Positions 15,385-37,574 of a stretch of DNA of 64,000 nucleotides are shown piece by piece (positions within the stretch are counted from its first letter, which is position 1; the number at the start of each line of letters is the position of its first letter). The DNA is from Streptomyces sp. NBC_00376. Its GTDB lineage: Bacteria; Actinomycetota; Actinomycetes; Streptomycetales; Streptomycetaceae. The DNA is taken from the NCBI RefSeq assembly GCF_036077095.1, contig NZ_CP107960.1:4526001-4590000 (forward strand), given 5' to 3'. The position numbers were made by a program, and so were the translations under genes. The notes under the pieces were generated by a model. The model worked only from the letters and a program-made list of their open reading frames with translations, had not been told where the DNA came from and searched no databases.

Positions 15385-17373
15385 TCACGTCCCCGGGGTC
15401 ACCCGGCGCCCTCCCCGCAGCAGTTCGGCCAGGCCTCGGCGGGTCGCGGCGATGACCACGCGGTCCTCGGGGCGCAGTACGTACCCGGGGTGCAGGTCCC
15501 AGACCAGGCCGGACGGATTGTCCGGGGAGACAGGGGCCAGATCCGGGCGGCGGTCGCCGGGTGGGGTGGCGTCCAGGGCGAGGACCCGCCAGGCGCCCGC
15601 CCGGAACGCCTGCTCCACCGTGTGGCCCTCCAGCTGCCGGTGGCCCGCCACCTCGACCGCGGCGAAGAGCATCACCTTGCGCTCGACGGGGATCGCGCCC
15701 AGGATCTGGCGGCCCATCATGGCGACCGCGAAGGCGGGGGCGGCCAGATGGGAGACGGAGCGGGAGCGGGTGACGGCCTGGGGGTGGGCGGTGCGCAGGG
15801 TGCGGTAGACGGCGGTGGCGAACTCGTCGTCGTACAGCCGCAGTGCCACCCGCAGGTCCGGCTTGACCGAGCGGGCGTAGAGGGCCGCCTCCAGGTTGGT
15901 GGTGTCGGCGCTGGTCAGGGCGAGGAGGGCGCGGGAGCGCTGGATCTTCGCCGCTTCCAGGACGCCTTCCTGGGTGACATCGCCGAGGACCACCGGTACG
16001 TGCAGCCGGCGGGCGACCGCGATGCCGCGCGCGTCCGGGTCGTCCTCCACGCACACCACCGGTATGCCGAGTTCACGCAGCCGGACCAGGACCCGGGTGC
16101 CGATCTTGCCGAGGCCGAGCAGCACCACATGGCCGGACAGGCCGCGTGGCGGGCGGCGCAGCGAGGAGGCCGTGCGGAGCGAGCCGAAGGCCTCCAGGAC
16201 ACCCGCGACGAGGAGCGGCAGCAGCATCAACCCGGCTATGCCGGAGAGGAGTTGAATGATCTGGCGGGCCAGCGGGTCCCCGGTCGCCGGGTCGCCCATT
16301 GCGAAGAGGTCGAGCAGGGTCAGGTAGGTGGCGTGCAGGGGGTCGTCGCCGGTGGTGAGCGTGGAGGCGATGGCGAGGCCCAGCACGGCCAGGCCGACGC
16401 CCAGCGCCGACCAGCGCAGCCGCCGCGAGAAGACCTGGCCGAGCGGTGCGCCCCGGCCGCCCATCCGGGGCGGTGGTCCGGGCGGGCCGGCCTGGCTGAC
16501 CGCCTCCAGGACCACCGTGCCCCGGCCCGTCGCGGCGGCCACCTGCCGTTCGTCGGGCAGCAGCCGGGGGCCTTCGTCGCCGCTGCTGTCGGAGCCCTCG
16601 GTGCCCGCCGGGTCATGGGTGGTGGAGGAGAGCAGGGCGAGGGTGCACAGGCCGGGGTCGGCGATCTGGCCGCCCCCGGGCGGGGTGCGTTCGGCGGCGC
16701 GCAGCAGCAGGCCCTCCGCCTGGATGACCTTGCTGGAGCCGGTGAGGACGGTGGCCGCGAGGGCGGGGGCCGCGGTGTCGGCGTCGGAGAGGACGGTGGT
16801 GGAGGCGTCCAGGGCGGCCCGGTCCAGGCCGGGGGTGGCGAGGGCGGCGGCCTGGTCGAGCAGCGTCTCCAGGTGCTGGCCCAGCTTGCGGTTGTAGAGC
16901 CGGATGACCAGCCGGAGGCGGGGGTTGAGGCGGCGGGCGGTCAGCGCGGCGCGGATGTTGCGCTCGTCGTCGTCGTACACCAGGGCCAGGGCGGCGGCCG
17001 AGGCGACGCCCGCCTCGTCGAACGCCTCGTCGGAGGGCTCCGCCGCCTCCAGGATGCGGACCGGGTCGACCCCGGCGTTGGTGTCGTCCCCGAGCGCGTC
17101 GGCCCCACCGCCTCCGCCGTTGCCGCCGTTGCGGTTCATCGCCGAGGACATGCGGCCGAACAGTGCGGATGCCAGCCCGCGTCCGGTCAGGGGGAGTTCG
17201 GGGCGGCGGGCGTCACGGCCGGGCGGCAGCAGAAGGGTTACCCGCTCCCCGTACACGTAGCGCAGTTCGACGGCGAGGCGCCGGGCCAGGGCGTCGTCGC
17301 CGCAGACGACCATGTGTCCGCTGAACGGGGAACGTTGGGGCTGCTGGGGAAGTGGGGGCACGTGACTCAGCAT
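15385..17373 (-). CDS. Two-RCK (TrkA-N) NAD-binding protein with pore-like region
   Basis: A 662-residue protein with two RCK/TrkA-N domains flanking a membrane section. The first RCK begins HMVVCGDDALARRLAVEL (residues ~20-37). A hydrophobic pair with a re-entrant-like segment (TYLTLLDLFAMGDPATGDP, residues ~345-363) follows at about residues 315-400. The second RCK has VVLLGLGKIGTRVLVRL (residues ~412-428). This layout matches CASTOR/POLLUX-like or MthK-type ion channels gated by nucleotide or ion binding to RCK. The filter position lacks the K+ signature TVGYG, so ion selectivity is uncertain. It is the last gene of the NfeD-flotillin-ATPase operon, 30 bases after the ATPase. Confidence 0.83.
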   Translation of the reverse strand: MLSHVPPLPQQPQRSPFSGHMVVCGDDALARRLAVELRYVYGERVTLLLPPGRDARRPELPLTGRGLASALFGRMSSAMNRNGGNGGGGGADALGDDTNAGVDPVRILEAAEPSDEAFDEAGVASAAALALVYDDDERNIRAALTARRLNPRLRLVIRLYNRKLGQHLETLLDQAAALATPGLDRAALDASTTVLSDADTAAPALAATVLTGSSKVIQAEGLLLRAAERTPPGGGQIADPGLCTLALLSSTTHDPAGTEGSDSSGDEGPRLLPDERQVAAATGRGTVVLEAVSQAGPPGPPPRMGGRGAPLGQVFSRRLRWSALGVGLAVLGLAIASTLTTGDDPLHATYLTLLDLFAMGDPATGDPLARQIIQLLSGIAGLMLLPLLVAGVLEAFGSLRTASSLRRPPRGLSGHVVLLGLGKIGTRVLVRLRELGIPVVCVEDDPDARGIAVARRLHVPVVLGDVTQEGVLEAAKIQRSRALLALTSADTTNLEAALYARSVKPDLRVALRLYDDEFATAVYRTLRTAHPQAVTRSRSVSHLAAPAFAVAMMGRQILGAIPVERKVMLFAAVEVAGHRQLEGHTVEQAFRAGAWRVLALDATPPGDRRPDLAPVSPDNPSGLVWDLHPGYVLRPEDRVVIAATRRGLAELLRGGRRVTPGT

Positions 17374-17403
17374 GCCTTGTTCCTCTCCCGTATATCCGGC
17401 GGC

Positions 17404-20400
17404 TCAGTGATCTTCTGTCGGTCCGGCGGGAGGGGGTGCCGCGTGGCGGGCCTGCGGGTTGGTGAGCAGATGGCGCGGGTCCGCGACCCGGACGATCGCC
17501 GTCTCGACCGCCGCGATCCGGTCCGCGAGCAGCCCCAGCGCGGCGACGGCCCGGGTCATCGGGTCGCCGTCCGGGCCGCCGAGTGCCTGGGTGCGGACGT
17601 AGGAGGCGGTGATCGCGGACCAGCGCGCGGACTGTTCGGGGGTGAGCCGGCCGCGCAGCGCGGCGAGCTTGAGCAGGTTCGACTCCGCGCCGGTGGTCAG
17701 CGTCTGGGCCTCGCCCGTGTAGTGGTCGTCGACGACGTCGGACAGCTCCGCCTCGTTCATCACCGGCACGATCCGCTCGGCGATCTTGTTCATGTTGCGG
17801 TACGAGCCCTGGAGCCGGAACGGCGGCTCGGTGCGCGTCGCGTCGGTCTGCGCGGCCGACGCGATGTACGTGGCGTTCACGGCCAGGACGGTGTCTCGGG
17901 CGGTCAGCAGATGGCGCAGGACCGCGACGATCCGGTCCACCTCGGCGGGGGCGTACGGGTGCTCCAGCCGGTCCGCGCGCGCCGCGCTGTCGCCGGAGGC
18001 GAGCCGTACGAACAGGGCGAGGTCGTCGCGGGAGCGCCCGGCGAGCGGTGCCAGCACCGGGTTGGCGGTCAGCGCGTTCTCGACGAAGCTCAGCGCGAAG
18101 ACGTCCTCGCGGCCGCTCAGCACCTCGCCGAGGTTCCACACGTCGGCCCGGTTGGCGAGCATGTCGGGGATCCGGAACCGCTCGCCCGACTCCGTGTACG
18201 GATTGCCCGCCATGCACACCGCGAACCGCTTGCCCCGCAGGTCGTGGCTGCGCGGCTCGCCGTCCCGCACGCCCTCGATGCGGCGGGTGGCGTCGCAGAG
18301 CGGGATGAACTTCTGGAGCAGTTCGGGCGAGGTGTGCTGGATGTCGTCGAGGTAGAGGAGCGTGTTGTTGCCGGACTCCAGCGCGAAGTTGATCTTTTCG
18401 ATCTCCTGGCGGGCGGTCGCCGTGCGGGCCTGGGCCGGGTCGAGCGAGGTCACGTCGTGACCGAGGTTCGGGCCGCTGATCTTGACGAGGACCAGGCCGA
18501 GCCGGTCGGCGACGTACTCCATCAGCGTCGTCTTGCCGTAGCCGGGCGGCGACACGAGCAGCAGCAGGCCCTGTGAGTCGGTGCGCCGGTCGGCGTCGGC
18601 GGTGCCGAGCTGCTTGGCGAGGCTGTCCCCGATCAGCGGCAGGTACACCTCGTCGAGCAGCCGGTTGCGGACGAACGCCGACATGACGCGCGGCCGGTGG
18701 TCGTCCAGCCGCAGCCGGGCCCGTTCGGTGTTCACCAGTGCCGTTCGCCGGCGCTGGTAGGCGCGGAAGCCGGGGACGGTCGCGGTGCGGAACTCGGCCG
18801 TACGGGCGAGGAGTTCGTCGATCCGGACGGTCAGTGCGCCCCTCTCGACGCGCGGGTGTGTGCCGAGCAGGCCCTCCACCCGTGCGGTCAGCGGGGCCTC
18901 GCAGTCGTACCGGTCGAGCACCGGCTCGGGGCAGAGCTCCACGGCGACGGCCTCCGCGAGATCGCCCGCGTCGATCGCGGTGCCGCTCGCGGTGGCGTAC
19001 GAGGTGAGCCAGCCCTCGACGAGCTGGCGGCGGGCCGGCAGGTCGTCGCCCAGTGCGGCGAGATCCTCGTCGTACGCCGAAGTGCCCGTCGTACGGCGGA
19101 ACTTGTCCAGAAACGTGCGGACGGCGGCGCTGGTCACGAAGCCGGCCGGGCCGCTCGTCAGCTCCTCGAAGAGGTACGCGGCGACGGCGGACGGGTCCTC
19201 GGGCGCGTCCGCCGCGCCCTCGCCGCCGATGACGGCCGCCCACTCCTCCTGGAGGGCGTCGACGGCCGGGGCGAGGCCGAAGGTCTCGCGGGCGCGGGCC
19301 AGTGAGCGGGCCCGCCGGGTCCATGAGGTGCGCCGCGCCTCGTCCGTGTTGTACGCCCAGAAGAGTTGAGCGGTTGCCCGGACGGCGGGCGGGCAGCGCA
19401 GCAGGCCGGCCCCGGCGTGCAGCCGCAGCAGGGCGGTGAGGATCGCGGTGGCGTCCTCGTCGTGGACGCCGCGCTGATAGCCCTCGTCGTATGCGGCGGC
19501 GGCCGACTCCCGCACCAGGGAGGTGAGTTCGGCCGGAGTCAGGGCGGCGAGGGTGTCCGCGCCCCGCTCGTCGAGGAGCCGGGCGGCCAGGTGCTCGGCC
19601 CGGTAGACCCGCGGGGACTCGGAGGGGAGGGTCTGCTCCCAGTACGGGCGGGTCGCCTCGAACTCCGGGTCGGTGACCGGCGCCCGGTAGTCCGTACCGG
19701 TGAGCGCGAAGGCGAGGCGGTCGCCGTGCGGGACGAGCGTCAGGTCGAAGGGCTGGGTGTTCACCGCGAACCGGTGCCGGCCCAGCCGGATCACAGCACC
19801 GCCGTCCGCGTACAGCTCGCTGCGGTCGCGCAGGGCGCGTCCGGCCTCCTGGCGGGCGGCCAGCAGCTGCCCGTCGAGCTCCTCGGCCCGCACCGGATCG
19901 CCGAGTTCGCGCAGCTCATCGGCGGTGCGGCGGATCTTGGCGGCCATCGGGTCGGAGGCCAGGAAGGTGTTCACGGAATCCAGGTCCGGCAGCGCGGTCA
20001 ACCGCCGGGAGACCGTCTCCAGGACCCGGGCCGCCGACTGGGCCAGCCGCTCGGCGCGCCGGGCGCGGGCGTCCTGGAGGGTCTGCTTGCGGGCCGAGAA
20101 CGCCTCGTACACCTCCGTCCGGCGCTCGGCCAGCTCGGCGAGGAAGTCGTCGAACTCAGCGAACCGCGACTCCAGGTTTTCCAGCTGGAGCAACAACCTG
20201 GAAAGTTGATCGTCACAGGCGTCCGGGGTGTCCGCGGCGGCGATCGCCCCGGTGACGGCCTGCCCGAGCAGCGCGAACTCGGCGGCGAACTCGGCGCGTC
20301 CCTCGTGGTCGAGGAGTTCGCGGCGGCGGGCTTCGAGCGTGGCGCGGGCGCGGTTGACCCCGCCGAGCACCTCGGCGATCCGCTCCAGGATCGAGGTGCG

Positions 20401-22380
20401 GACCGTCGTGTCCCCGATGTCGAGACCGGCGACGACGTCCGTGACGGTGCTCAGCCCGTCCGTCATTCCGTTCAGTCGCTCGCCGAGCGCCGCCGCGTCC
20501 GCGACGGTGGCGAGTTCGGACGCCTCGGCGGTGAGAGCGGCGATCGACTCGTGGTAGCCGGTGAAGGCGTCGTCCCGGCCGAGGAAGGCGACGGCGCGCT
20601 GTGCGGCCGATTCGAGGTCGGCGGCGGTCGCGGCGGAGAGTTCGGCGATCCGCTCGGTGTCCGCGTACCGCATCTCGGCCAGCGTCGCCAAGTGGCCATG
20701 GGCGCGGCGCAGTTCGGTGAGCTGGTCCACCCAGGCGGCGGCCGAGCGGGGGGCCTCGCCACGGATGCGGCGGACGAGCGCGGTGAGCCGGTCGGCCGTC
20801 TCGTCGAGCGCGTCGGCGGCCTGCCGGGTCAGCTCCCGCACGGTCTCGAACTCGGTCAGGACCTGCTCGGCGGTGGCCTTCAGCTCCGCCAACGGGGCGG
20901 CGAGTTCGCCGAGTTCGGCGTCGGTGAGCCAGTGGTAGCGGTCGGTGGCCCGGGTGCAGTCCGCGACCAGCTGCGCGTACACGGCGGCGGTCGGGGTGGT
21001 CTCGGCGGCGCTGTGCGCGAGCGCCAGGCAGTCGGAGATCCCGCGCACCAGATCGGCGTTGCCGACCCGGGCCAGCGGGCCGGTTCCGGCGGGGCGGGAG
21101 GCCGCGTGGGTGTCGGAGACGTACGGGGTCCGCCAGCGCTGCAAGGGGTGGACCCGGGCCGGTTCGTCGCCGGTGGCGGTGGTGCGCAGCAGGACGAGGG
21201 TGCCGTCGTCGAGCAGGGCGTGGCCCCGGCCCTGGAGCGGGGTGGCGACCTCCTGCCGGATCAGGTTGTAGGGCAGGAGCAGTGCGCGGCCGTCGTCGGG
21301 GGAGCGGAAGACGTAGAGGACGTCCTCGCCGTTCGGGGAGCGGACCGCGCCCTCGAAGACCGGGCCGGTGAGGGGTTCGGCGATGTCGAAGGTCTTGGCG
21401 GTGCCGGTGGTGAGGTAGTAGCCGCCGGGGAAGATGATCCCCTGGTCCTCCGGGAGCCGGTGGCAGGCCGGCCCGATGCCGTCGAGCCGCAGCACGGTGC
21501 CGAGCAGCGAGTTGAAGACCAGGTACCGCCAGGACTCCTCGTTGTACGGGCGGATACGGAGCAGGACCAGCGGTCCGATCGTGGCGTGCTCGACCTCCGC
21601 GTCGGCGAGCGACTGGAGGGGTTCGGCGACCGGCTCCCGGTAGATCCCGTCCGGGGTGTCGGTGTCGTTGACCGTCTTGACGGTGAGGGTCCCGCCGAGC
21701 GTGTCGACGTAGAGCGCGGCGCTGTCCGGGCCGTCCCCGCCGACCGCGATGTGCGGGTGCCGGCCCAGAACGTGCGACTCGCGCCCGGCGGCGGTCCAGG
21801 TGAAGTCGTGCGAGGGCGGGAAGACGTGGTCGCGGTCGCCGCGCGCGTCGAGGAACGCGCCCGGCGACCCGTCCGGGGCGAGCGCCCAGCGCAGCACCCG
21901 GATGCCGTCCGCGCTCTCGCCGGTGCGGAAGACGGCGAGCAGCTTTCCGTCCACCAGGCGCAGCCGCAGCAGCCGGGCGTCGCGGTAGTAGCGGTGCAGC
22001 GCGGTGAACTCGCGTACGAAGTCCTCGTCGGCCAGTAGGCCGCCCGCGGCGGGCGACCCCAACTCCGATCCGTACAGGGCGAGTACGTCGGACAGGTCGG
22101 CCGGGTCCGCCGCTCCCGGGCCCCGCTCGAAGCCGAACAGCAGCTGCCCGCCGACGGCCACCAGGTCGCGGGGGACCGCCGCGTGGCCGGTGCGGATCTG
22201 CTCGGTGCCGGCGAGCCGGAGCTCGGTCGAGCCGAACTCCGCGGTGCGGCGCGCGTTCAGTTCCTCGGCGCGGCGTGCGAGTTCGGCGGCCCGGTCGCCG
22301 AGCCGGCGGCGCAGCACGTCGTACGTCCCCGCGTCCACGGGGCCGCCGGTGGGCGCTGCGGTCGTGGTGTCGGTGTCCAT
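17404..22380 (-). CDS. Giant AAA+ ATPase ('DNA repair ATPase' family)
   Basis: A 1658-residue cytosolic ATPase. Residues ~1-480 form a beta-rich repeat region with many Arg/Gly/aromatic turns. Residues ~490-870 are coiled-coil-rich. The C-terminal AAA+ module has Walker A PPGYGKTT near residue 1277 and Walker B LLYLDDIQHT near 1343, then a sensor-like GNPYTESGERFRIPD segment and ANRADVWNLGE. Databases tend to label this family 'DNA repair ATPase', but I see no nuclease, helicase or DNA-binding motif. The MoxR-like AAA+ style suggests a remodelling chaperone. Sitting between a flotillin and an RCK channel-like protein, it more likely works at a membrane scaffold. Start ATG 22380. Confidence 0.82.
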   Translation of the reverse strand: MDTDTTTAAPTGGPVDAGTYDVLRRRLGDRAAELARRAEELNARRTAEFGSTELRLAGTEQIRTGHAAVPRDLVAVGGQLLFGFERGPGAADPADLSDVLALYGSELGSPAAGGLLADEDFVREFTALHRYYRDARLLRLRLVDGKLLAVFRTGESADGIRVLRWALAPDGSPGAFLDARGDRDHVFPPSHDFTWTAAGRESHVLGRHPHIAVGGDGPDSAALYVDTLGGTLTVKTVNDTDTPDGIYREPVAEPLQSLADAEVEHATIGPLVLLRIRPYNEESWRYLVFNSLLGTVLRLDGIGPACHRLPEDQGIIFPGGYYLTTGTAKTFDIAEPLTGPVFEGAVRSPNGEDVLYVFRSPDDGRALLLPYNLIRQEVATPLQGRGHALLDDGTLVLLRTTATGDEPARVHPLQRWRTPYVSDTHAASRPAGTGPLARVGNADLVRGISDCLALAHSAAETTPTAAVYAQLVADCTRATDRYHWLTDAELGELAAPLAELKATAEQVLTEFETVRELTRQAADALDETADRLTALVRRIRGEAPRSAAAWVDQLTELRRAHGHLATLAEMRYADTERIAELSAATAADLESAAQRAVAFLGRDDAFTGYHESIAALTAEASELATVADAAALGERLNGMTDGLSTVTDVVAGLDIGDTTVRTSILERIAEVLGGVNRARATLEARRRELLDHEGRAEFAAEFALLGQAVTGAIAAADTPDACDDQLSRLLLQLENLESRFAEFDDFLAELAERRTEVYEAFSARKQTLQDARARRAERLAQSAARVLETVSRRLTALPDLDSVNTFLASDPMAAKIRRTADELRELGDPVRAEELDGQLLAARQEAGRALRDRSELYADGGAVIRLGRHRFAVNTQPFDLTLVPHGDRLAFALTGTDYRAPVTDPEFEATRPYWEQTLPSESPRVYRAEHLAARLLDERGADTLAALTPAELTSLVRESAAAAYDEGYQRGVHDEDATAILTALLRLHAGAGLLRCPPAVRATAQLFWAYNTDEARRTSWTRRARSLARARETFGLAPAVDALQEEWAAVIGGEGAADAPEDPSAVAAYLFEELTSGPAGFVTSAAVRTFLDKFRRTTGTSAYDEDLAALGDDLPARRQLVEGWLTSYATASGTAIDAGDLAEAVAVELCPEPVLDRYDCEAPLTARVEGLLGTHPRVERGALTVRIDELLARTAEFRTATVPGFRAYQRRRTALVNTERARLRLDDHRPRVMSAFVRNRLLDEVYLPLIGDSLAKQLGTADADRRTDSQGLLLLVSPPGYGKTTLMEYVADRLGLVLVKISGPNLGHDVTSLDPAQARTATARQEIEKINFALESGNNTLLYLDDIQHTSPELLQKFIPLCDATRRIEGVRDGEPRSHDLRGKRFAVCMAGNPYTESGERFRIPDMLANRADVWNLGEVLSGREDVFALSFVENALTANPVLAPLAGRSRDDLALFVRLASGDSAARADRLEHPYAPAEVDRIVAVLRHLLTARDTVLAVNATYIASAAQTDATRTEPPFRLQGSYRNMNKIAERIVPVMNEAELSDVVDDHYTGEAQTLTTGAESNLLKLAALRGRLTPEQSARWSAITASYVRTQALGGPDGDPMTRAVAALGLLADRIAAVETAIVRVADPRHLLTNPQARHAAPPPAGPTEDH

Positions 22381-22487
22381 GCGTACGACTCTCCCTGCGA
22401 GGTGTTACGGGGCGGGTGGTGCCGGGGCGCGGGTGGTGCGGGGGCGCGTCGGGCTGTCGGGTCGCGCGGCCTCCGGCCGCGCTCTGT

Positions 22488-22568
22488 CCTCGATCTCCCC
22501 CATAGCCCGAAAGGCATGGGGGGACCCCTCGACGGGCTTGATCTGCCCGCCCGTCCGGCGATCGAGGT
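22488..22568. repeat. Imperfect palindromic intergenic repeat
   Basis: An ~81-bp element between the flotillin and ATPase genes. Outer arms CCTCGATC/GATCGAGG enclose an inner hairpin (TCCCCCAT at 22496-22503 with ATGGGGGGA at 22516-22524). The inner part shares its CCCC...GGGGGGACCCC layout with the repeat inside the exonuclease gene at 14785-14832. It may form a stable mRNA hairpin between two operon genes. Confidence 0.55.
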
Positions 22569-22582
22569 TCGCCCTGTGTGCC

Positions 22583-24733
22583 CTACGCGACCGGCGCGGA
22601 CCCGTTCCGCGAGACGGGTACGGCGGTGGCGTCCGCCGCCCCCGTCGCCGCGGGGACATCCGGCCCGGTCAGTACGGAGACCGGCTGGTCGGCGAGGCCC
22701 AGTTCCTTCGCGGCGGCCAGCAGCTGCTGGATCTGCCCCGAGGAGACACCCGCTCCCGGCGCCTTCATCATCCGCATCAGCAGCGCGGACACCGTCAGGT
22801 TCTGCACATCGCCCGTGGACACCGACCCGAGCACCCGGGTCAGGTCGTCCGTGAACGACGAGGTGCCGTTCAGCCACGGACCCGCGAGGGCCTGCGCGGT
22901 GTCCGAGTTCTTCACGAACCCGTCGAAGCTCTTGCCCATCGAGACGGCCGAGACCAGCCGGTCGAAGAAGACCGACTCCCCGCCGACGATGTCGATGTCG
23001 GCGTTCTCCAGGCCGGTGGCCAGCACCGTGGCCTGCGCCTCGGCGACCTGCCGCTGCACGTCGAGGCCGGCCAGCCGGATCTCCTTCTCCGCGGCGAGCC
23101 GCAGCCGGTACTCCTCGTGTCCGCGCGAGGCGTCGTCCAGCGCCGCCATCGCGGCCGCCTTCTCGGTGAGGCCCGCCGCTTCGGCCTTCAGCTTCTCGCC
23201 GATCATCGCCGCGTCGGCCGTCGCCTGGGCCTGGGTGCCCTCGGCTGCCGCGAGTGCCTTGAGCCTGGCCCCCTCCGCCTCGGCCCTGAGCCGGGCGGAC
23301 GTGGCCTCGGCCTCGGCGAGACCGGCCTTCTCGATGACATCCGCCTCCGCCTCACGGACCTGGATCTCGGCGAGGCCGGGCGCCGCGGACTCCGCCTGGA
23401 TGCCCTCGGCCAGCCGCAGCTTCGCCTGGGCGTCCAGGTCCGCGGTCTTCAGCCGGGCCTCGGCGAGCGTCAGCTGCTCGGCGGCCAGGTGGGTGGCCGC
23501 GGCCTCCGCCGCCTCGGCGGCCTTGATGTCCTTGACCAGCTTCTCCTGGGCCTCCGCCTCGGCGGCGATGATGACCGACCTGCGGGTGCGCTCCGACTCC
23601 TCGACGGCCCGCAGCGTCTTGATCGACTCCTCCTGCTCGGCGACCGTACGGTCCACCGCGATCCGCTCCCGGATCACATCGGCGACCTCGCGGCGCTCGG
23701 CCTCGACCTCCTTCGTCGCGGCGATCCGGTTCAGCTCGGTCTGCCGCTCGCGCCCGATGACCTCGATCAGCCGGTCCTTCTCGATGCGCTCGTTCTCCAC
23801 CGCGATGACCCGCTCACGGTTCTTCTGCGCGACGGCGATCTCCCGGGCCTGGTTCTCGCGCTGGATGCCGAGCTGCTCCTCGGTACGGATGAACGCGGCC
23901 TGGGCGCCGAGCCGTTCCTCCTCCTGGACCTTGGCGGTGGCGGCCTCCTCGCGGGCCCGCAGCGTCTCGACCTCGCGGCGCTGCTTGATCTCGGCCTCGG
24001 CCTGCCGGCGCTCCAGCTCCAGGATGGTCTCCCGGGCGTCGACGTCCTGCCGGGTGATCTCCTTCTGCTCGGTGCGCTGGAACTCGTTGGTGCGTACGTG
24101 CTCGATCGCCGTCAGCTCGGTGATCTTGCGGATGCCCTGCGCGTCCAGGATGTTGGCGCCGTCGAGCTGCGTCATCGGCGTCTGCTCGAGGAAGTCGATC
24201 GCGGCGTCGTCGAGGTGGTAGCCGTTCAGGTCGGTGCCGATGACCCGGATGATCCGGTCCCGGAACTCCTCGCGCTTGGTGTACAGATCGACGAAGTCCA
24301 GCTGCTTGCCGACGGTCTTGAGCGCCTCGGCGAACTTCGCGCCGAAGAACTCCTGGATCGCCACCTTGTCGCTGGCCCGCTCGGTCCCGATGGACTGGGC
24401 GACCTTGATGACGTCCTCGACGGTCTTGTTGACCCGCACGAAGAAATTGATGTGGATGTCGGCGCGGATGTTGTCCTGGCAGATCAGGCCCTCGCGCCCG
24501 GTACGGCGGATCTCGATGGTCTTCACCGAGATGTCCATGGTCTCGGCCTTGTGCAGGACCGGCAGGACGACGGCCCCGGTGAAGGTGACATCGACCTTCT
24601 TGGTCTTGGAGATGATCAGCGCCTTGCCCTGCTCGACCTTGCGGAAGAGCCGGCTGATGACGAGGAGCAGGGCGACGGCGATGAGCAGAACAACGGCTAC
24701 GAGCACACCGAAGCCCAGGGTGATGGCATCCAT
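22583..24733 (-). CDS. Flotillin/SPFH membrane scaffold protein (YqiK-like)
   Basis: A 716-residue protein. An N-terminal membrane helix (GFGVLVAVVLLIAVALLLVI, residues ~8-27) is followed by an SPFH/Band-7 domain (~30-240). A very long Ala/Glu-rich coiled coil follows (~240-570), and the last ~130 residues are globular. Flotillins polymerise on the cytoplasmic face of membranes and organise microdomains. The length and extended head match the YqiK type rather than FloT. ATG 24733 lies behind AAGGA. The upstream gene is the NfeD-like partner, as in yqiJ-yqiK of E. coli, and the giant ATPase follows 202 bp downstream. Confidence 0.9.
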   Translation of the reverse strand: MDAITLGFGVLVAVVLLIAVALLLVISRLFRKVEQGKALIISKTKKVDVTFTGAVVLPVLHKAETMDISVKTIEIRRTGREGLICQDNIRADIHINFFVRVNKTVEDVIKVAQSIGTERASDKVAIQEFFGAKFAEALKTVGKQLDFVDLYTKREEFRDRIIRVIGTDLNGYHLDDAAIDFLEQTPMTQLDGANILDAQGIRKITELTAIEHVRTNEFQRTEQKEITRQDVDARETILELERRQAEAEIKQRREVETLRAREEAATAKVQEEERLGAQAAFIRTEEQLGIQRENQAREIAVAQKNRERVIAVENERIEKDRLIEVIGRERQTELNRIAATKEVEAERREVADVIRERIAVDRTVAEQEESIKTLRAVEESERTRRSVIIAAEAEAQEKLVKDIKAAEAAEAAATHLAAEQLTLAEARLKTADLDAQAKLRLAEGIQAESAAPGLAEIQVREAEADVIEKAGLAEAEATSARLRAEAEGARLKALAAAEGTQAQATADAAMIGEKLKAEAAGLTEKAAAMAALDDASRGHEEYRLRLAAEKEIRLAGLDVQRQVAEAQATVLATGLENADIDIVGGESVFFDRLVSAVSMGKSFDGFVKNSDTAQALAGPWLNGTSSFTDDLTRVLGSVSTGDVQNLTVSALLMRMMKAPGAGVSSGQIQQLLAAAKELGLADQPVSVLTGPDVPAATGAADATAVPVSRNGSAPVA

Positions 24734-24903
24734 GACAGTCCTTGCGGCTGGTGAGGAAGATGGTGAAGGAAGAGGAGGGGTGCGGCAGCGGGCGGCCCGA
24801 CGGCGGGCGACCGATCACAGGGCGGCGACGCGGCGGCCGGTCCGGCCGGCCCACGCGGACCGGGCGATTCGAGTGGCCCGCGCTGTCCGGGTGGTCCGGG
24901 CGG

Positions 24904-25569
24904 TCAGCCGGTGCGGCGTGGGGTGCGGCGCGCACCCGTGCGTGGTCGTGGCGTCGGCGGGCCCGGGTCCAGCGCCTTGTCGTAGGGCGAGACCCAGAAG
25001 AACTCGCCCTCGTCGTCGTACGCGTACAGGAGCCCCGCACTGCCCGCGGTGAGGACCGGGCCGTCCGCCGGAGCGAGCAGCCTGACCTGGACGATCGCGG
25101 TGGAGCCGTCGTCCGCGGTGACCTCGGCCTGGCCGAAGTCGGAGCTGACGGAGCCGGTACGGACCGTGCAGACCCGGCCCAGGAAGTCCTGCCGCGACGG
25201 AGGCGGCTCGTCCGGGAAGCGCCGGCGGAAGCAGCGCACCAGGACCCGCAGCACGGCCCAGCCGAGCAGCAGCGCCCCGGCGAACACGCCGCAGGCCAAC
25301 GCGGCCCGGGTCAGGCCGGTGGTGCCGCTTCGGTGCACCAGGACCGTACCGGTGAGGCTGATGAACCAGCCGACGACGACCATCACGGAAACCGAGACGG
25401 TGACCGGCACCCCGCCGATCCCGGCCAGGTCGGTGTCGAGGTCGCCGTCGAAGGAGTGGTGGTCGGCCGCACCGACCAGCACCAGGAGCCAGAAGAGGAC
25501 GACGACGGCCAGCGCCGCGCCGAAGAGAACTGCGGGAAAGGCGGTCGCTGCGCTCAGGAACTCCTGCAT
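24904..25569 (-). CDS. NfeD-like OB-fold membrane protein (YqiJ-like)
   Basis: A 221-residue protein. It has hydrophobic segments at residues ~12-35, 52-72 and 80-105 and a C-terminal OB-fold-like domain (residues ~120-205, with FLGRVCTVRTGSVSSDFGQAEV). This is the NfeD/YqiJ layout, in which a membrane anchor carries a soluble OB domain that partners flotillin. ATG 25569 follows AGGAGAAGGG. An in-frame ATG at 25623 lies inside a strong hairpin and is less likely. It is the first gene of the four-gene operon. Confidence 0.85.
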   Translation of the reverse strand: MQEFLSAATAFPAVLFGAALAVVVLFWLLVLVGAADHHSFDGDLDTDLAGIGGVPVTVSVSVMVVVGWFISLTGTVLVHRSGTTGLTRAALACGVFAGALLLGWAVLRVLVRCFRRRFPDEPPPSRQDFLGRVCTVRTGSVSSDFGQAEVTADDGSTAIVQVRLLAPADGPVLTAGSAGLLYAYDDEGEFFWVSPYDKALDPGPPTPRPRTGARRTPRRTG

Positions 25570-25610: not shown

Positions 25611-25647
25611 GCTGCTGCGGCACCGCGTGGCGCGGTGCCGCAGCAGC
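25611..25647 (-). promoter_or_regulatory. 17-bp perfect leader hairpin
   Basis: Arms 25611-25627 and 25631-25647 pair perfectly around a TGG loop, about 42 bases before ATG 25569. No T-tract follows on the minus strand, so it is not a standard terminator. It would form a very stable hairpin in the 5' leader of the flotillin operon, or stop transcripts entering from the right. Confidence 0.6.
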
Positions 25648-25724: not shown

Positions 25725-25767
25725 GCACTGCCGGAATCCGGCAATCTTTACCCGTCCTTGATGCCGG
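25725..25767. promoter_or_regulatory. Conserved element A with TGCCGGNNTCCGGCA palindrome
   Basis: Forty-three bases that match 37531-37574 almost exactly (two centre bases of the palindrome, two substitutions and one gap). The core is TGCCGGAATCCGGCA, followed by CAATCTTTACCCGT and CTTGATGCCGG. It lies between the NfeD-flotillin operon (minus) and the PucR-family gene (plus), and is a candidate operator for both. Confidence 0.6.
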
Positions 25768-25833
25768 GCACCGGCATCGGCCGGTAAGCGTTGGGTGAGT
25801 GTCAACGTCGCGTCAGGACTGTGAGGAGAACGC

Positions 25834-26904
25834 GTGCCGGAGCCGGAGATCCCCGATGAGCTTCTGGCGGGATATGACCGCATCCTGACCGATGTGGCCG
25901 CCACCGGCCGCCGGCTCACCCGTGACGAGCTGGATGACCGCCGCCTCCTGGGCCGGGAGGCCGCCGAGTCCGGGTTCCAGCTGCGCGCCCTGGTCGTCCG
26001 GCATATCGCGGAGACCCGCGCCGCCTGGCCGCTCGGCGCCACGGCCGACGGCGCGGCCACGGATTCGGTGCTGGCCGCGGTCCAGCAGGCCGTGGACGCC
26101 TTCGCGGACGGCTTCGAAAGGGCCCAGCGGATGACCGTGCGGCGGGAGGAGGCGGCGCGCCGCGAGTTCATCGACGACCTGCTGTACGGGCGCAGCGATC
26201 TGGGCCGGCTCGCCGAGCGGGCCACCCGGTTCGGGCTGCGGCTCTCCCGCGCGCACGCGGTCGCGGTGGCGACGGGCCCGGAGGCGTACACGGAGACCGA
26301 CTCCGTGCCGCGCACGGTCGAGGCGGCGCTGCTCGCCCGGTTCAGCGGCCGGAAGATCCTGCTCACGACGAAGGACGGGCGGCTGGTCTGCATCGCCCCC
26401 GGCAGTCAGCCCGACGTCCTGCGGTACTTCGCCAAGCAGTCGCACGCGGCGACGGACGGCGGCCGGGTCGCGGTGGGCCGACCGCACCACGGGCCCGGCG
26501 GCGTGGTCCACTCCTACGACGAGGCGCTGGAAGCGCTGGACCTGGCGGAGCGGATGGATCTGGACGATCCGGTGCTGTACGCGGCCGATCTGCTGGTCTA
26601 TCCGGTGCTGACCCGTGACCGGCAGGCGATGGCCGATCTGGTCCGCAGTCAGCTGGGCCCGCTCCAGCAGGCCCGTGGTGGCGCCGAACCCCTGCTGAAG
26701 ACGCTCGCCGCCTACTTCGACGCGGGCTGTGTGGCCGCGGAGACGGCCCGCCGGCTGTCGCTGAGCGTGCGGGCGCTGACCTACCGGCTGGAGCGGATCC
26801 ATCAGTTGACCGGTTCCGACCCGTCCGACCCGATGCACCGCTACACCCTGCAGACGGCGGTCATAGGCGCACAGCTGCTCGACTGGCCGGCCAAGGAGAT
26901 CTGA
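25834..26904 (+). CDS. PucR/CdaR-family transcriptional regulator
   Basis: A 356-residue regulator starting at GTG 25834 behind GTGAGGAGAAC. The C-terminal ~60 residues are the PucR HTH_30 module (YFDAGCVAAETARRLSLSVR, then YRLERIHQLTG). The N-terminal ~130 residues are a helical region of unknown ligand, and the middle resembles the GGDEF-like connector of CdaR. Family members usually activate or repress an adjacent catabolic or stress operon in response to a metabolite. It is divergent from the flotillin operon, with the conserved palindrome between them. Confidence 0.87.
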   Translation: MPEPEIPDELLAGYDRILTDVAATGRRLTRDELDDRRLLGREAAESGFQLRALVVRHIAETRAAWPLGATADGAATDSVLAAVQQAVDAFADGFERAQRMTVRREEAARREFIDDLLYGRSDLGRLAERATRFGLRLSRAHAVAVATGPEAYTETDSVPRTVEAALLARFSGRKILLTTKDGRLVCIAPGSQPDVLRYFAKQSHAATDGGRVAVGRPHHGPGGVVHSYDEALEALDLAERMDLDDPVLYAADLLVYPVLTRDRQAMADLVRSQLGPLQQARGGAEPLLKTLAAYFDAGCVAAETARRLSLSVRALTYRLERIHQLTGSDPSDPMHRYTLQTAVIGAQLLDWPAKEI

Positions 26905-27153: not shown

Positions 27154-27609
27154 CTACAGGTCGAACTCGTGCGGCGGGAGGTCGAGCGCGAAGCACGCCT
27201 CGCGCACGACGGCCTGCTCCGACTTGTCGAAGTCGCCGTCGGCGCCGCCGATGACGATGCCGATCTGGATGACGGCACGAGCCTCGGCGGGCTTCTTCTT
27301 CGCCTTGCCGATCTCCTGGAGCACGCTGACCTTGCCGAAGGCGAAGTCGGCGGTGAGCTTGTTCACGTAGTCGTTGAAGCGGCGCTGGAGGTCGTCCGCC
27401 GGGAAGTTCTGCAGGACCTCGTTGGAGGCGATCAGCGAGGCGACGCGCTGGCGCTCGGACGGGTCGATGGAACCGTCGGCAGCGGCGACAAGGGCACACA
27501 TCGCCATGCTCGCGTCGCGGAACGCCCCGCTCTTCAGGTCGTTCTTCTTGGCTTCCAGCTGCGACTGCATCGACGAGGCGGATTCCTTGATCCGATCCCA
27601 CAGTGCCAT
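27154..27609 (-). CDS. terB: TerB-family tellurite-resistance protein
   Basis: A 151-residue all-helical protein of the TerB/YebC-like superfamily. Its hallmarks are MCALVAAADGSIDPSERQRV (residues ~37-56) and the second half-repeat VIGGADGDFDKSEQAVVREA. Both contain acidic DG-x-D/DPSE loops that bind metal in TerB structures. Family knowledge links TerB to tellurite and phage or stress responses at the membrane. ATG 27609 has GGAGAC upstream. It stands alone, divergent from the BlaI gene. Confidence 0.9.
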   Translation of the reverse strand: MALWDRIKESASSMQSQLEAKKNDLKSGAFRDASMAMCALVAAADGSIDPSERQRVASLIASNEVLQNFPADDLQRRFNDYVNKLTADFAFGKVSVLQEIGKAKKKPAEARAVIQIGIVIGGADGDFDKSEQAVVREACFALDLPPHEFDL

Positions 27610-29291: not shown

Positions 29292-30569
29292 TCAGTCGGC
29301 GGAGGCGGCGAACTCCTCCTGAGCGGCGGGCGCTGCGGGCTCGGCGGACGCCGTACGCACCGCAGGCACCTCACCGCTGCCACCCTTGCCGCTACTGCTG
29401 CCACTGCCGTCCCGGCCGCGCCACGCCTGGATCTTGGCGACGACGGGCTGGGTCCAGCGGGCGGTGAGCGGTCCGACGATGACGAGGATGAGGACGTACG
29501 CGGTGGCGATCGGCCCGATCCGGGGCTCGGTCGCCACGGCCAGTCCGGCGATGACGATGGAGAACTCACCGCGTGCGACGAGCGTCCCGCCGGCCCGCCA
29601 CCGCCCGCGCGAACCGATTCCGGCGCGCCGGGCCGCGTACCAGCCGGTGGCAATCTTGGTGAAGACGGTGACGATCGCCAGCAGCGCCGCGGGGAGCAGC
29701 ACCGGCGGGATCTCGGCCGGGTTGGTGGAGAGCCCGAAGAACACGAAGAAGACGGCTGCGAACAGGTCCCGCAGCGGCGTCAGCAGCTTGCGCGCACCCT
29801 CGGCGACCTCGCCCGAGAGTGCGATCCCCACCAGGAACGCGCCGACGGCGGCGGAGACCTGCAACTGCTGGGCAACGCCCGCCACCAGTACGGTCAGCCC
29901 GAGGACGACCAGGAGCAGCATCTCAGGGTTGTCCGAGGACACGGCCCGGCTGATCAGCCGCCCGTGCCGCAGCGCCAGATAGAGGACGAACCCGACGGTG
30001 CCGAGCGCGATGAGCAGGGCGATGCTGCCCCCGGCGAGGCCGACTCCCGCGAGCATCGCGGTGAGCAGCGGCAGGTATACGGCCATCGACAGGTCCTCGA
30101 TGACGAGCACGCCGAGGATGACGGGTGTCTCCCGGTTGCCCAGCCGTCCGAGGTCGGTGAGCACCTTCGCGATGACCCCGGACGAGGAGATCCAGGTGAC
30201 CCCGGCCAGTGCGACCGCTCCCACGGGCCCCCAGCCGAGCAGCAGCGCGGCGACGGCTCCCGGGGTCGCGTTGAGTACGAAGTCCACGGCCCCGGAAGGG
30301 TATTGGGTCTTGAGACTGGTCACCAGTTCCGAGGCGCTGTACTCCAGGCCGAGCAGGAGCAGCAGCAGGATGACGCCGATCTCGGCGCCGACGGCGGTGA
30401 ACTCCTCACTGGCCCCGAGCGGCAGCAGCCCGCCCTCGCCGAACGCGAGCCCGGCCAGCAGATACAGCGGGATCGGCGAGAGCCCAATCCGCCCGGCGAA
30501 GCGGCCGATGATGCCCAGTCCCAGAATGACGGAGCCGAGCTCCACCAGCAGTGCGGTCGTGTCGTGCAC
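29292..30569 (-). CDS. CPA2 cation:proton antiporter (KefB/KhtU-like)
   Basis: A 425-residue protein with about 12 membrane helices of the Na+/H+ exchanger fold. Ion-site residues are in TWISSSGVIAKVL and GVLVIEDLSMAVYLP (Glu-Asp pair, residues ~155-157). The C-terminal ~50 residues are a Ser/Gly/Ala-rich cytoplasmic tail without an RCK domain. GTG 30569 lies two bases after the stop of the regulatory-subunit gene. Together they match KhtT-KhtU K+/H+ antiporters, which export K+ at high pH or under electrophile stress. Confidence 0.9.
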   Translation of the reverse strand: MHDTTALLVELGSVILGLGIIGRFAGRIGLSPIPLYLLAGLAFGEGGLLPLGASEEFTAVGAEIGVILLLLLLGLEYSASELVTSLKTQYPSGAVDFVLNATPGAVAALLLGWGPVGAVALAGVTWISSSGVIAKVLTDLGRLGNRETPVILGVLVIEDLSMAVYLPLLTAMLAGVGLAGGSIALLIALGTVGFVLYLALRHGRLISRAVSSDNPEMLLLVVLGLTVLVAGVAQQLQVSAAVGAFLVGIALSGEVAEGARKLLTPLRDLFAAVFFVFFGLSTNPAEIPPVLLPAALLAIVTVFTKIATGWYAARRAGIGSRGRWRAGGTLVARGEFSIVIAGLAVATEPRIGPIATAYVLILVIVGPLTARWTQPVVAKIQAWRGRDGSGSSSGKGGSGEVPAVRTASAEPAAPAAQEEFAASAD

Positions 30570-30571
30570 GG

Positions 30572-31042
30572 TCAGCCCTCCGCGATGATCTCGGAGAGCG
30601 CGTCGACGCCCTCACGCGTTCCGACGGCGACCAGGGTGTCGCCGATGGCCAGCCGGAAGTCCGGCCCCGGGGACGGATGCGCACTGTGCGTCCGCAGCAC
30701 CGCCACGATCGAGGCCCCCGTCCGGGTCCGCGCCTTCGTGTCCCCGAGCAGCCGTCCGCCGTACGGGGAGCGGCTCCCGAGCGGGATGTGCTCGGTGACC
30801 AGGTCGATGCCCTCGGTGCGTACGGCGTCGATGGGCGCCGAGTCGATGAGGTGTGCGAGGCCGGTGGCCTCCTGCGGTGTCAGGGGTACCGAGAGCCGGC
30901 ACGAATCAGGGTCGTCCTGGTCGTAGAAGCCGATGAACCGCCGCCCGTCGTGGTGGACGACGACGGAGATGTGCTGTCCCGACTCGGTCGTGTAGTCGTA
31001 CTGCACACCGACTCCGGGCAGCGTGGTGCGGTGGGTTCCCAT
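30572..31042 (-). CDS. Antiporter regulatory subunit with RCK-C domain (KhtT-like)
   Basis: A 156-residue soluble protein starting at ATG 31042 behind GGGAGGAAG. The N-terminal half is specific to this family (GVGVQYDYTTESGQHISVVV). The C-terminal ~70 residues form a TrkA-C/RCK-C domain (GASIVAVLRTHSAHPSPGPDFRL, then GDTLVAVGT). In KhtTU the RCK-C subunit senses c-di-AMP or K+/pH and gates the antiporter. It is the first gene of the pair, two bases before the antiporter. Confidence 0.88.
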   Translation of the reverse strand: MGTHRTTLPGVGVQYDYTTESGQHISVVVHHDGRRFIGFYDQDDPDSCRLSVPLTPQEATGLAHLIDSAPIDAVRTEGIDLVTEHIPLGSRSPYGGRLLGDTKARTRTGASIVAVLRTHSAHPSPGPDFRLAIGDTLVAVGTREGVDALSEIIAEG

Positions 31043-31315
31043 GGCTTCCTCCCGAGTGTGCGGCGGCTCTTGACGCACTTGGTGATCTCTTTATCTGCGC
31101 ATTACCCTATCCGGAGGGTTCCGCCGCCTCCGGTGCGCGGGCTGCCGGGCCCGCTTCGCCGACCTGGGTTGCGCGCCACGCTGCTACCGGGGGACATGAC
31201 CTCTGACCATCACTTACGGGACAAGTCTGAGCAATCCACACTTTTGGGGAATTGTCGGCGCTGCGATTGATTGGTGATCCTTTTCGTGCCCGGAACGTGC
31301 TTCGAAAGGGATGCC

Positions 31316-35387: not shown

Positions 35388-36848
35388 TCAGTCGGTGATC
35401 TCGATCTTGCCGTTCTGGTCGCTGTTCGCGGTGGCGTTCGCGGCGGTGGGCTCCGGCTGGGCCGGGACCTCCGCCCTGGGGCCCGCGCCCTTCAGGTTCT
35501 TCAGCAGGGCGGCGAGGTCGACGCCCGTGGTGGAGCTGAGGAGTTCCATGCCCTGGGCGACGTTGTCGGTGACCGTACGTGACAGCCGGCTCGCGCCGTC
35601 CGTCGAGATCACGGTCATCTTGTCGACGGCGCTCAGCGGCTCGGACGCCTTGGCGACGACCTGCGGCAGCACCTCGACCAGCATCTGGAGCACGGCCGCG
35701 TCGCCGTACTGCGCGAAGGCGTCCGCCTTCTTCTGCATGGCCTCGGCCTCGGCCGCACCCTTCGCCGCGATGGCCGCGGCCTCCGCCTCGCCCTCGATGC
35801 GTACGGCGTCGGCGAGCGCCGAGCGGTGCAGCTTCTCGCCCTGACCGGTCAGCCGGGAGCGCTCGGCGTCCGCCTCGGCCTCCTTGACCTGGGCGATCCG
35901 GCGGGCCTCGGCCTCCTGCTCGGCCTGGTAGCGGGCGGCGTCGGCGGGCTTGCGGACCTTGGTGTCGAGCTCGCGGTCGGTCAGCGCGGCCTGGCGCTGG
36001 GCGACCTTCTCCTGCTCGGCGAGGACTTCCTGCTGGCGGGCCGCCTCGGCGAGCGGGCCCGCCGCGTTGGCCTTGGCCGCGGCGGCTTCCGTCTCGGCCT
36101 TGATCTCCGCCTGCTTGAGGTAGAAGGTCCGCTCGGCGATGGCGATCTCCTCGGCGGCCTTCAGCCGGGCCTGCTCGGAGGCCCGCTTGGCGATCGCCTC
36201 GGCGATGTCCGCCTCCTGCTTGGCGCGCGCGGCCTCCGGGCGGCCGAGGTCCTCCAGGTAGGAGCCCTCGGTGGTGATGTCCTGGATCTGGAAGGCGTCC
36301 AGGATCAGGCCCTGGCCGGAGAGGCTGGCCTCCGCCTCCTCCGCGACCTGGCCGGCGAACGCGGCCCGGTCCCGGATGATGTCCTCGACCGACATCCGGC
36401 CGACGATGGCGCGCAGTGCGCCGGAGAGCACTTCCTGGGTGAAGCCGACGATGCCGTCCTGCTGCTGGAGGAACCGCTGGGCCGCGGCCCGGATCGCTTC
36501 CTCGCTGCCGCCGACCTTGACGATCGCGACGCCCTCCAGGTTGGACTTCACGCCGCGCAGGGTGACGGCGCCGCGCACCGCGATCGGGATGTGCCGGCTG
36601 GAGAGGTCAAGGGTGAACTTCTGCTGGACGAACGGGACGACGAAGACGCCGCCGCCGACCACGACCTTCTGGCCGCTGTTGTCGATGCTGGTGCGACCGG
36701 TCACCGGGTCGGTGGACTTCTTGCCGCGGCGGCCGGTGATGATGAACGCCTCGCTGGGCCCGGCGACCTTGTAGCGGGTGATGACGACGAGTGCGAGCAG
36801 CACCAGGAGTACGACTACTCCGGCGACTGCGGTCACGACTGGGCTCAT
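35388..36848 (-). CDS. Second flotillin/SPFH protein (FloT-like)
   Basis: A 486-residue flotillin. It has a membrane helix at residues ~5-25, an SPFH domain (~26-190, with SGQKVVVGGGVFVVPFVQQ and ALRAIVGRMSVEDIIRDRAAF), a long Ala/Glu coiled coil (~200-380) and a flotillin C-terminus. It is shorter than the 716-residue flotillin at 22583-24733 and closer to canonical FloT/YuaG. ATG 36848. The NfeD-like partner is immediately upstream on the same strand. Two different flotillin/NfeD modules thus lie within 15 kb. Confidence 0.92.
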   Translation of the reverse strand: MSPVVTAVAGVVVLLVLLALVVITRYKVAGPSEAFIITGRRGKKSTDPVTGRTSIDNSGQKVVVGGGVFVVPFVQQKFTLDLSSRHIPIAVRGAVTLRGVKSNLEGVAIVKVGGSEEAIRAAAQRFLQQQDGIVGFTQEVLSGALRAIVGRMSVEDIIRDRAAFAGQVAEEAEASLSGQGLILDAFQIQDITTEGSYLEDLGRPEAARAKQEADIAEAIAKRASEQARLKAAEEIAIAERTFYLKQAEIKAETEAAAAKANAAGPLAEAARQQEVLAEQEKVAQRQAALTDRELDTKVRKPADAARYQAEQEAEARRIAQVKEAEADAERSRLTGQGEKLHRSALADAVRIEGEAEAAAIAAKGAAEAEAMQKKADAFAQYGDAAVLQMLVEVLPQVVAKASEPLSAVDKMTVISTDGASRLSRTVTDNVAQGMELLSSTTGVDLAALLKNLKGAGPRAEVPAQPEPTAANATANSDQNGKIEITD

Positions 36849-36938
36849 GTGGTGTCCCCCCTGCCTCCCTGCGGGGACGGCAGTTTGGTTTCGGGCACCG
36901 TGTCGCCGCGCGGCACGGCGTCTTGGCTCGGGCGGTGG

Positions 36939-37448: not shown

Positions 37449-37530
37449 CTGGTCACCCTCCCCGATGCTCGAAATGCCCCGAACATTTCCGTCGAACTGG
37501 CTGGATGATCCCATACGTACCGGCTCATGG

Positions 37531-37574
37531 GCACTGCCGGGTTCCGGCAATCTTTTACGCGTTCTTGATGCCGG
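37531..37574. promoter_or_regulatory. Conserved element B with TGCCGGNNTCCGGCA palindrome
   Basis: This segment matches element A at 25725-25767. Core TGCCGGGTTCCGGCA, then CAATCTTTTACGCGT and CTTGATGCCGG. It lies 83 bases before the NfeD 2 start and overlaps the last codons of the peroxiredoxin gene (stop 37555). Being shared by both flotillin/NfeD loci in the same orientation suggests a common operator or a duplication scar. Confidence 0.6.

What the first reader, a model, noticed from the sequence alone, without database searches (positions are those of the whole stretch)
15385..25569. NfeD/flotillin/giant AAA+/RCK-channel operon as a membrane system
Four minus-strand genes are spaced 30, 202 and 170 bp apart: NfeD-like, YqiK-type flotillin, a 1658-residue AAA+ ATPase with a beta-rich head and coiled coil, and a two-RCK protein with a pore-like segment lacking the K+ filter. 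Flotillin and NfeD are an established membrane-scaffold pair. Adding an AAA+ remodeller and an RCK channel-like protein implies a membrane assembly gated by nucleotide or ion signals. The database label 'DNA repair ATPase' is not supported by any nuclease or helicase motif. The combination looks like an uncharacterised membrane-remodelling or stress/defence system.
Basis: partly seen in the sequence, partly recalled or inferred. Interest (0 to 1): 0.78.

Follow-up and report, generated by a model that had tools for sequence, protein, structure and literature searches.

The report
Flotillin–AAA+ operon within an ion regulon
In this Streptomyces genome a known but unstudied flotillin–AAA+ membrane machine sits in one operon with an altered ion-channel-like protein, and a shared DNA switch sequence ties such operons to a second flotillin pair and, in related species, to a cation/proton exchanger, suggesting that it helps manage membranes and ions under stress.

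Summary
The four minus-strand genes are real and at the stated coordinates. Three of them (NfeD/YqiJ-like, YqiK-type flotillin, DUF3686 AAA+ ATPase) form a cassette conserved from Streptomyces to Deinococcus, Pseudomonas, Proteus and Hymenobacter, already described in silico in 2024 as a PspA-associated operon (PMC11237479). In 199 Streptomyces genomes the ATPase occurs in 105, and all 105 carry this flotillin. The AAA+ core resembles NorQ/CbbQ (MoxR) chaperones on a weak model; nothing supports DNA repair or defence. RCK is optional: 173 of 199 genomes carry the family, but it lies within 7 kb of the ATPase in only 30 of 105. Four close relatives lack flotillin and ATPase yet keep RCK. Its K+ filter is replaced by a conserved acidic LLDLxxxx(D/E)P-like motif.

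New here: the palindrome TGCCGG-N3-CCGGCA lies twice between nfeD and a divergent PucR-type regulator. With at most one mismatch it precedes 64 of 66 nfeD, 15 of 16 CPA-type cation/proton antiporter and 9 of 12 second-NfeD genes, but 0 of 35 KhtT and 0 of 36 KhtU genes. The trio thus appears to belong to a local envelope/ion regulon. Function is untested.

The parts
24904..25569 (-). NfeD/YqiJ-like 3-TM protein (221 aa), first gene of the operon
   Evidence: same position before flotillin in Deinococcus, Pseudomonas and Hymenobacter loci
22583..24733 (-). YqiK-type SPFH/band-7 flotillin with long coiled coil (716 aa)
   Evidence: Band_7 37.6 bits and 35.9 bits on the N-terminal part; its family is in all 105 ATPase genomes of 199
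17404..22380 (-). Giant AAA+ ATPase (1658 aa): DUF3686 head, DUF7902/coiled-coil middle, C-terminal AAA+ core resembling NorQ/CbbQ (MoxR type)
15385..17373 (-). RCK-2TM-RCK channel-like protein (662 aa) with substituted filter; pore helix and filter region at residues 345-362
25834..26904 (+). Divergent PucR-type regulator (GGDEF-like PF17853 + HTH_30 PF13556)
   Evidence: conserved neighbour
25762..25776 (.). Operator-like palindrome TGCCGG-N3-CCGGCA, copy 1, nfeD/PucR divergent promoter
25729..25743 (.). Operator-like palindrome, copy 2, 33 bp from copy 1
37535..37549 (.). Operator-like palindrome, copy 3, centred about 94 bp upstream of the likely start (37448) of the second NfeD gene
   Evidence: start judged from homologues
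35388..36848 (-). Second flotillin (Band_7 + Flot)
36939..37550 (-). Second NfeD-like membrane gene (longest ORF; likely start 37448)
   Evidence: no Pfam match, so named from its position before a flotillin
29292..30569 (-). Cation/proton antiporter (PF00999), KhtU-like by my recall
   Evidence: no operator upstream of its relatives (0 of 36)
30572..31078 (-). TrkA_C regulatory subunit, KhtT-like by my recall, of that antiporter
27154..27609 (-). TerB-family protein between the regulator and the antiporter

Best explanation
The operon encodes a flotillin/NfeD membrane scaffold with a dedicated AAA+ chaperone that remodels membrane-bound complexes under envelope or ion stress. Inferred mechanism: the NfeD and SPFH proteins build a membrane-attached cage; the giant ATPase docks on it through its DUF3686/coiled-coil part and uses a NorQ/CbbQ-like ring to assemble, repair or take apart a client in or on the membrane. 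PspA, encoded elsewhere in the genome, or an ion-transport protein is a likely client. In Streptomyces a PucR-type regulator, acting at TGCCGG-N3-CCGGCA, controls the trio, the second NfeD/flotillin pair and, in some species, a cation/proton antiporter. In this clade RCK is added to the same transcript as a nucleotide- or ligand-sensing membrane protein that reports or adjusts ion state. Shown by comparison: trio conservation, the shared palindrome, the variable RCK. Inferred: the cage, the ATPase's client, the co-transcription, the inducing signal, the binding of PucR to the palindrome, and any conduction by RCK.
Against: No expression, binding or phenotype data. The operator is not enriched upstream of KhtT/KhtU (0 of 35, 0 of 36), TerB (1 of 24) or NhaD34 (0 of 10), so not every neighbour is in the regulon. 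Of 18 PucR genes away from the trio only 6 have an exact site and 12 a site with at most one mismatch; of 20 nfeD genes without an adjacent PucR 19 keep such a site, so another protein could read it. Outside Streptomyces the site was not found before the operon. The ATPase model is weak (mean pLDDT 59.7), and RuvB and NorQ tie in Foldseek. No NfeD was detected in 11 of 80 loci that had flotillin and usable upstream sequence. Loci are phylogenetically related, so counts are not independent.
Confidence: 0.57

Rival explanations
1. RCK is a hitchhiker: the trio works alone as an envelope-stress module and the downstream RCK gene merely shares a transcript in one clade.
For: RCK in 76 of 94 trio-less genomes; 28 of 30 RCK loci from trio-less genomes had none of the 13 other genes sought; RCK present without flotillin and ATPase in L114-L117; no RCK gene recognised in the 9 non-Streptomyces plasmid-collection loci or G113.
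Against: RCK lies within 25 kb of the ATPase in 40 of 105 genomes, about 0.7 expected for 8-Mb genomes, in several arrangements: downstream co-directional, convergent, divergent from nfeD. It is also divergent to NfeD2 across a one-mismatch palindrome in L121, L193 and L201. Starred branches of the tree force at least 7 changes of the trio-linked state.
Confidence: 0.2
2. A physical four-protein assembly in which the RCK protein gates a pore inside the flotillin/NfeD cage and the ATPase drives it.
For: AAA-RCK spacing of about 30 bp kept in this clade; recurrent linkage.
Against: No RCK within the stretch held in 36 of 80 ATPase loci; flotillin and ATPase are missing while RCK is kept in four relatives. 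No complex was modelled.
Confidence: 0.13
3. Anti-phage or mobile-element defence system.
For: Patchy presence (105 of 199); occurs on plasmids; absent from some close relatives.
Against: No meaningful match in the PADLOC library for the seven proteins given; its conserved neighbours are antiporters, a regulator and a second flotillin pair.
Confidence: 0.05
4. DNA repair ATPase, as the database label says.
For: Pfam's description of DUF3686; P-loop similarity to RuvB.
Against: No nuclease or DNA-binding family in the protein, and RuvB similarity confined to the P-loop region; the gene comes with a membrane flotillin.
Confidence: 0.03

Closest known systems
YqiJ/YuaF - band-7/flotillin - AAA+ operon associated with CesT/Tir-PspA (PMC11237479, 2024)
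   Same: [quoted passage not shown] It also reports a potassium channel with ligand sensing in a different PspA operon type (polyamine genes, YjfL)
   Different: In the passages seen for this operon type no RCK protein, antiporter, PucR regulator or operator is mentioned; 'RCK' and 'TrkA' occur 0 times in the main text
SPFH-NfeD cages such as QmcA(YbbK)-YbbJ, and FtsH-HflKC (cited in PMC13086221, passages)
   Same: SPFH plus NfeD, or SPFH plus AAA+; a working analogy for the trio
   Different: FtsH is a protease; this ATPase is another AAA+ class, with no protease domain found
NorQ / CbbQ MoxR-family AAA+ activases
   Same: Best fold matches of the AAA+ core
   Different: Fused to a part of about 1100 residues with DUF3686 and DUF7902; a VWA partner was not searched for
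MthK and GsuK RCK-gated K+ channels
   Different: Pore lies between the two RCK domains and lacks TVGYG
CASTOR/POLLUX/DMI1 plant Ca2+ channels (PMC6697748, passages)
   Different: Filter AD(S/A)GNHA not present; in CASTOR the membrane segments precede the soluble RCK part

Membership tests
Published YqiJ - band-7/flotillin - AAA+ operon | Co-directional 3-TM NfeD/YqiJ, flotillin, AAA+ | tested here: met
Published YqiJ - band-7/flotillin - AAA+ operon | Band-7 domain in the flotillin | tested here: met
Published YqiJ - band-7/flotillin - AAA+ operon | AAA+ with N-terminal beta-propeller and coiled coil | tested here: inconclusive
   DUF3686, DUF7902 and AAA found; the DUF3686 profile has no sequence relative in the PDB; the propeller itself was not modelled
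Published YqiJ - band-7/flotillin - AAA+ operon | Linked PspA (absent in the abbreviated versions) | tested here: not met
   both PspA genes of the genome lie over 1 Mb away; fits the published abbreviated version. CesT/Tir was not searched for
NfeD/YqiJ family | NfeD or YqiJ_OB domain | tested here: inconclusive
   no match in the window protein; sub-threshold in two of four orthologues
MoxR-type AAA+ | Walker A, Walker B and sensor-region motifs of an active AAA+ | tested here: met
   SPPGYGKTTL, YxDDIQH, GNPYTxxG and PDMLxNRxD identical in window and 10 distant relatives; likeness of these to MoxR motifs is recalled
MoxR-type AAA+ | Fold closest to MoxR structures | tested here: met
   [not shown]
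K+-selective channel | TVGYG filter | tested here: not met
   0 of 77 family members; TVGYGD in L156 and L157, GYGD in L158
RCK-gated channel superfamily | 2-TM pore with pore helix plus RCK domains | tested here: met
   conduction not testable
CASTOR/POLLUX | AD(S/A)GNHA filter and TM-before-RCK order | tested here: not met
PucR/CdaR-type regulator | GGDEF-like domain plus PucR C-terminal HTH | tested here: met
   both over cut-off
PucR/CdaR-type regulator | Binds the palindrome | not testable with these tools
   inferred from divergent position
DNA repair ATPase | Nuclease, helicase or DNA-binding domain | tested here: not met
   only RuvB P-loop similarity below cut-off
Known anti-phage system | PADLOC family match | tested here: not met
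   no match for six of seven proteins; the ATPase only weak rows (LmuB, IetA), best E 0.0024

The most novel reading that the evidence does not exclude
Streptomyces has a PucR-controlled regulon in which two flotillin/NfeD scaffolds, a MoxR-class AAA+ remodeller, a cation/proton antiporter and a filter-substituted RCK channel act together. RCK would be a new channel type whose conserved acidic pore (D355, D/E361) gives it a non-K+ selectivity, kept or assembled by the flotillin/AAA+ machine and gated by nucleotides.
Probability: 0.15. Interest if true: 0.82.

Novelty: new variant of a known kind. Interest (0 to 1): 0.57.

Why it matters
Bacterial flotillins have few clear phenotypes: deleting individual or multiple SPFH genes of P. 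aeruginosa gave no pronounced ones (PMC13086221, passage). A shared palindrome linking two flotillin operons to a cation/proton antiporter gives a concrete, testable hint of what such machines respond to, and argues against the 'DNA repair' label carried by database entries (names). It also points to an RCK channel-like family that lost its K+ filter but kept conserved acidic pore residues.

Tried and rejected
Defence reading: PADLOC and PHROGs gave nothing meaningful. CASTOR/POLLUX membership: filter and domain order do not fit. RCK as a fixed partner: rejected. My early impression that RCK usually sits by KhtTU or FLOT2 came from 12 hand-picked loci (L114-L125: 5 of 12 with each); 30 further loci from trio-less genomes gave 0 of 30 for both. 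TerB and KhtTU as regulon members: no enrichment of the operator. DUF3686 as a beta-propeller: no PDB sequence relative, not modelled. Terminator/promoter scan: no sigma-70-like site, and one terminator-like site, on the plus strand inside the flotillin gene; uninformative for Streptomyces. The FLOT-AAA gap folds no better than shuffles. A hairpin sequence in that gap is single-copy in the genome, so not a repeat family. Paper searches for DUF3686, PF12458 and flotillin + NfeD + 'DNA repair ATPase' found no paper; PucR/Streptomyces/operator/flotillin (11 papers, 10 listed) and flotillin/antiporter/Streptomyces (1 paper) listed nothing that seemed relevant by title or start of abstract; I opened none of those. 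Rows dropped: 8 of 126 RCK sequences for length and 15 near-duplicates before the tree; RCK sequences outside 560-760 aa before the structure alignment; genes too near a locus end before the operator counts.
Full report
What is there. The window lies at 4,526,001-4,590,000 of the main contig of a 10.04-Mb genome whose best 80 ATPase matches in genome contigs are all Streptomyces. The four genes are as described: NfeD-like 25569-24904, flotillin 24733-22583, ATPase 22380-17404, RCK 17373-15385, all minus strand, gaps 170, 202 and 30 bp.

The trio. The scan for the ATPase found 295 relatives in genome contigs, of which the best 80 loci were kept. Flotillin was detected in 77 of 80; the three others start at a contig edge. 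NfeD was detected in 63 of 80. Of the 17 without a match, 6 lack usable upstream sequence and 11 show no membrane ORF upstream by my simple hydropathy test. In 199 Streptomyces genomes DUF3686 occurs in 105 and the flotillin in 106: the same 105, by comparison of the two lists, plus one fragment. In at least two fragmented assemblies (G341, G373) the two lie on different contigs. Among 246 genomes across the phylum 8 had DUF3686: 7 of the same genus, the window's own included, and one of another family. Twelve plasmid-collection records carry the ATPase, in Streptomyces, Nonomuraea, Deinococcus, Pseudomonas, Proteus, Halomonas, Hymenobacter, Photobacterium and Vibrio; I opened 11 of the 12, leaving out the second Proteus record. 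In all 11 a flotillin precedes the ATPase in the same direction. Of the 9 from other genera, 8 have a recognised NfeD-like gene before the flotillin; Vibrio (L111) has an unassigned 203-residue ORF there. In pQBR103 and Hymenobacter, PspA genes precede the trio. This is the operon described by Ravi and co-workers in 2024 (PMC11237479; passages via find; the authors' name is recalled). So the core is known, though only by comparative genomics in what I read. The same paper reports a ligand-sensing potassium channel in a different PspA operon type, so a channel partner for such systems has a precedent.

How RCK relates to the trio. RCK relatives occur in 173 of 199 Streptomyces genomes: 97 of 105 with the trio and 76 of 94 without (Fisher p 0.02). 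Distance to the ATPase: up to 7 kb in 30 of 105, 7-25 kb in 10, 25-100 kb in 5, further on the same contig in 17, and other contig, not listed or absent in 43 (a lower bound, since cut its list). Random placement would give about 0.7 genomes within 25 kb. The RCK tree (103 rows, quick method) puts the window in a clade of 22 rows (support 100): 18 trio-linked and 4 that lack flotillin and ATPase but keep RCK, the PucR regulator and other neighbours. Their nested position suggests loss. In those four, nfeD is nearly full length in L114, partial in L115 and L117 and not found in L116. A second clade (support 86) holds 13 trio-linked of 17 rows, and L129 is separate; starred branches force at least 7 changes of state. 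Of 30 RCK loci from trio-less genomes (chosen for roomy contigs, not a random draw), 28 had none of the other genes sought and 2 had PucR, antiporter CPA33 and NhaD34; none had FLOT2 or KhtTU. Of 10 RCK loci unlinked in trio genomes, 2 had KhtTU, 2 FLOT2 and 2 PucR. Twenty control stretches from the same genomes had none of the 14 genes. RCK is thus a genus-wide family whose copies came to lie by flotillin loci more than once, not an obligate subunit.

The operator. Aligning 45 nfeD/PucR intergenic regions revealed TGCCGG-N3-CCGGCA: 28 have two or more exact copies, 14 have one, 3 none; in the window the two copies lie 33 bp apart, as in most of its relatives that have both. The window holds two copies there (25729-25743, 25762-25776) and a third at 37535-37549, about 94 bp upstream of the likely start of the second NfeD gene. 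The whole genome has 15 sites against 6 for the reversed pattern; the other 12 fall inside ORFs called by my simple GC-frame caller. The third window site also lies just inside the longest ORF, so its promoter position rests on the start supported by homologues. In 140 Streptomyces loci (3.02 Mb) there are 132 exact sites, and 126 lie within -60 to 450 bp upstream of a start of the 14 tested families. Exact, then with at most one mismatch: nfeD 58 and 64 of 66; PucR 58 and 68 of 74; CPA33 antiporter 9 and 15 of 16; NfeD2 4 and 9 of 12; flotillin 4 and 9 of 82; ATPase 0 and 1 of 86; KhtT 0 and 0 of 35; KhtU 0 and 0 of 36; FLOT2 0 and 0 of 14; TerB 0 and 1 of 24; NhaD34 0 and 0 of 10; TrkH 0 and 1 of 3; TrkA 0 and 0 of 4; RCK 1 and 10 of 101. 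nfeD and PucR usually share one divergent region, so their counts are not separate. The CPA33 site lies 142-152 bp upstream in all 15, and 12 of these sites are not shared with PucR, nfeD or RCK. Randomly placed sites give means of 3.9, 4.5, 1.3 and 0.9 for nfeD, PucR, CPA33 and NfeD2 against 64, 68, 15 and 10 observed (slightly wider window). ATPase promoters lack the site, which fits co-transcription from nfeD. In L121, L193 and L201 RCK is divergent to NfeD2 across a one-mismatch site. Outside Streptomyces, no site with at most one mismatch was found before the operon in the nine plasmid-collection loci or G113; the Streptomyces plasmid locus L105 has one with one mismatch.

Limits. Counts come from related genomes, some represented twice, and are not independent. 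PucR as the reader of the site is inferred from its divergent position; 19 of 20 nfeD genes without an adjacent PucR keep a site with at most one mismatch, so a distant PucR or another protein would have to read it there. The inducing signal is unknown; the antiporter link suggests cations or pH. Nothing here tests a physical complex.

Verdict. The trio is a known kind. The Streptomyces variant, with its palindrome-defined regulon and recurrently linked, filter-substituted RCK protein, is new as far as my ten paper searches show and is directly testable.

Noticed in passing
window 25611-25647: Perfect 16-bp inverted repeat with a 5-base loop between the operator and the nfeD start; possible leader hairpin (read by eye).
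   Followed up: no
window 35388-37550: A second NfeD/flotillin pair within 13 kb of the first; this genome has 9 Band_7 matches in all.
   Followed up: partly
L105, 17065-18366: On a Streptomyces globosus plasmid a Na+/H+ antiporter NhaA gene follows the ATPase directly, another cation/proton antiporter beside the trio.
   Followed up: no
L103: Streptomyces plasmid island with TrkH, TrkA, antiporter, CBS and ArsB/NhaD genes, PucR, RCK, both flotillin systems and TerD together.
   Followed up: partly
G000:C1:3169774 and 6337293: Two PspA genes lie far from the operon.
   Followed up: no
L066, L073, L080, L084-L086, L091, L095-L097, L099: Flotillin-ATPase loci without a detectable NfeD upstream; in the wider set the operator lies in the flotillin promoter window in 7 of 82 loci, not checked against this list.
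   Followed up: partly
window 22583-24733: A whole-protein Pfam scan misses the band-7 domain of this flotillin; it appears when the N-terminus is scanned alone, so such proteins may be under-annotated.
   Followed up: yes
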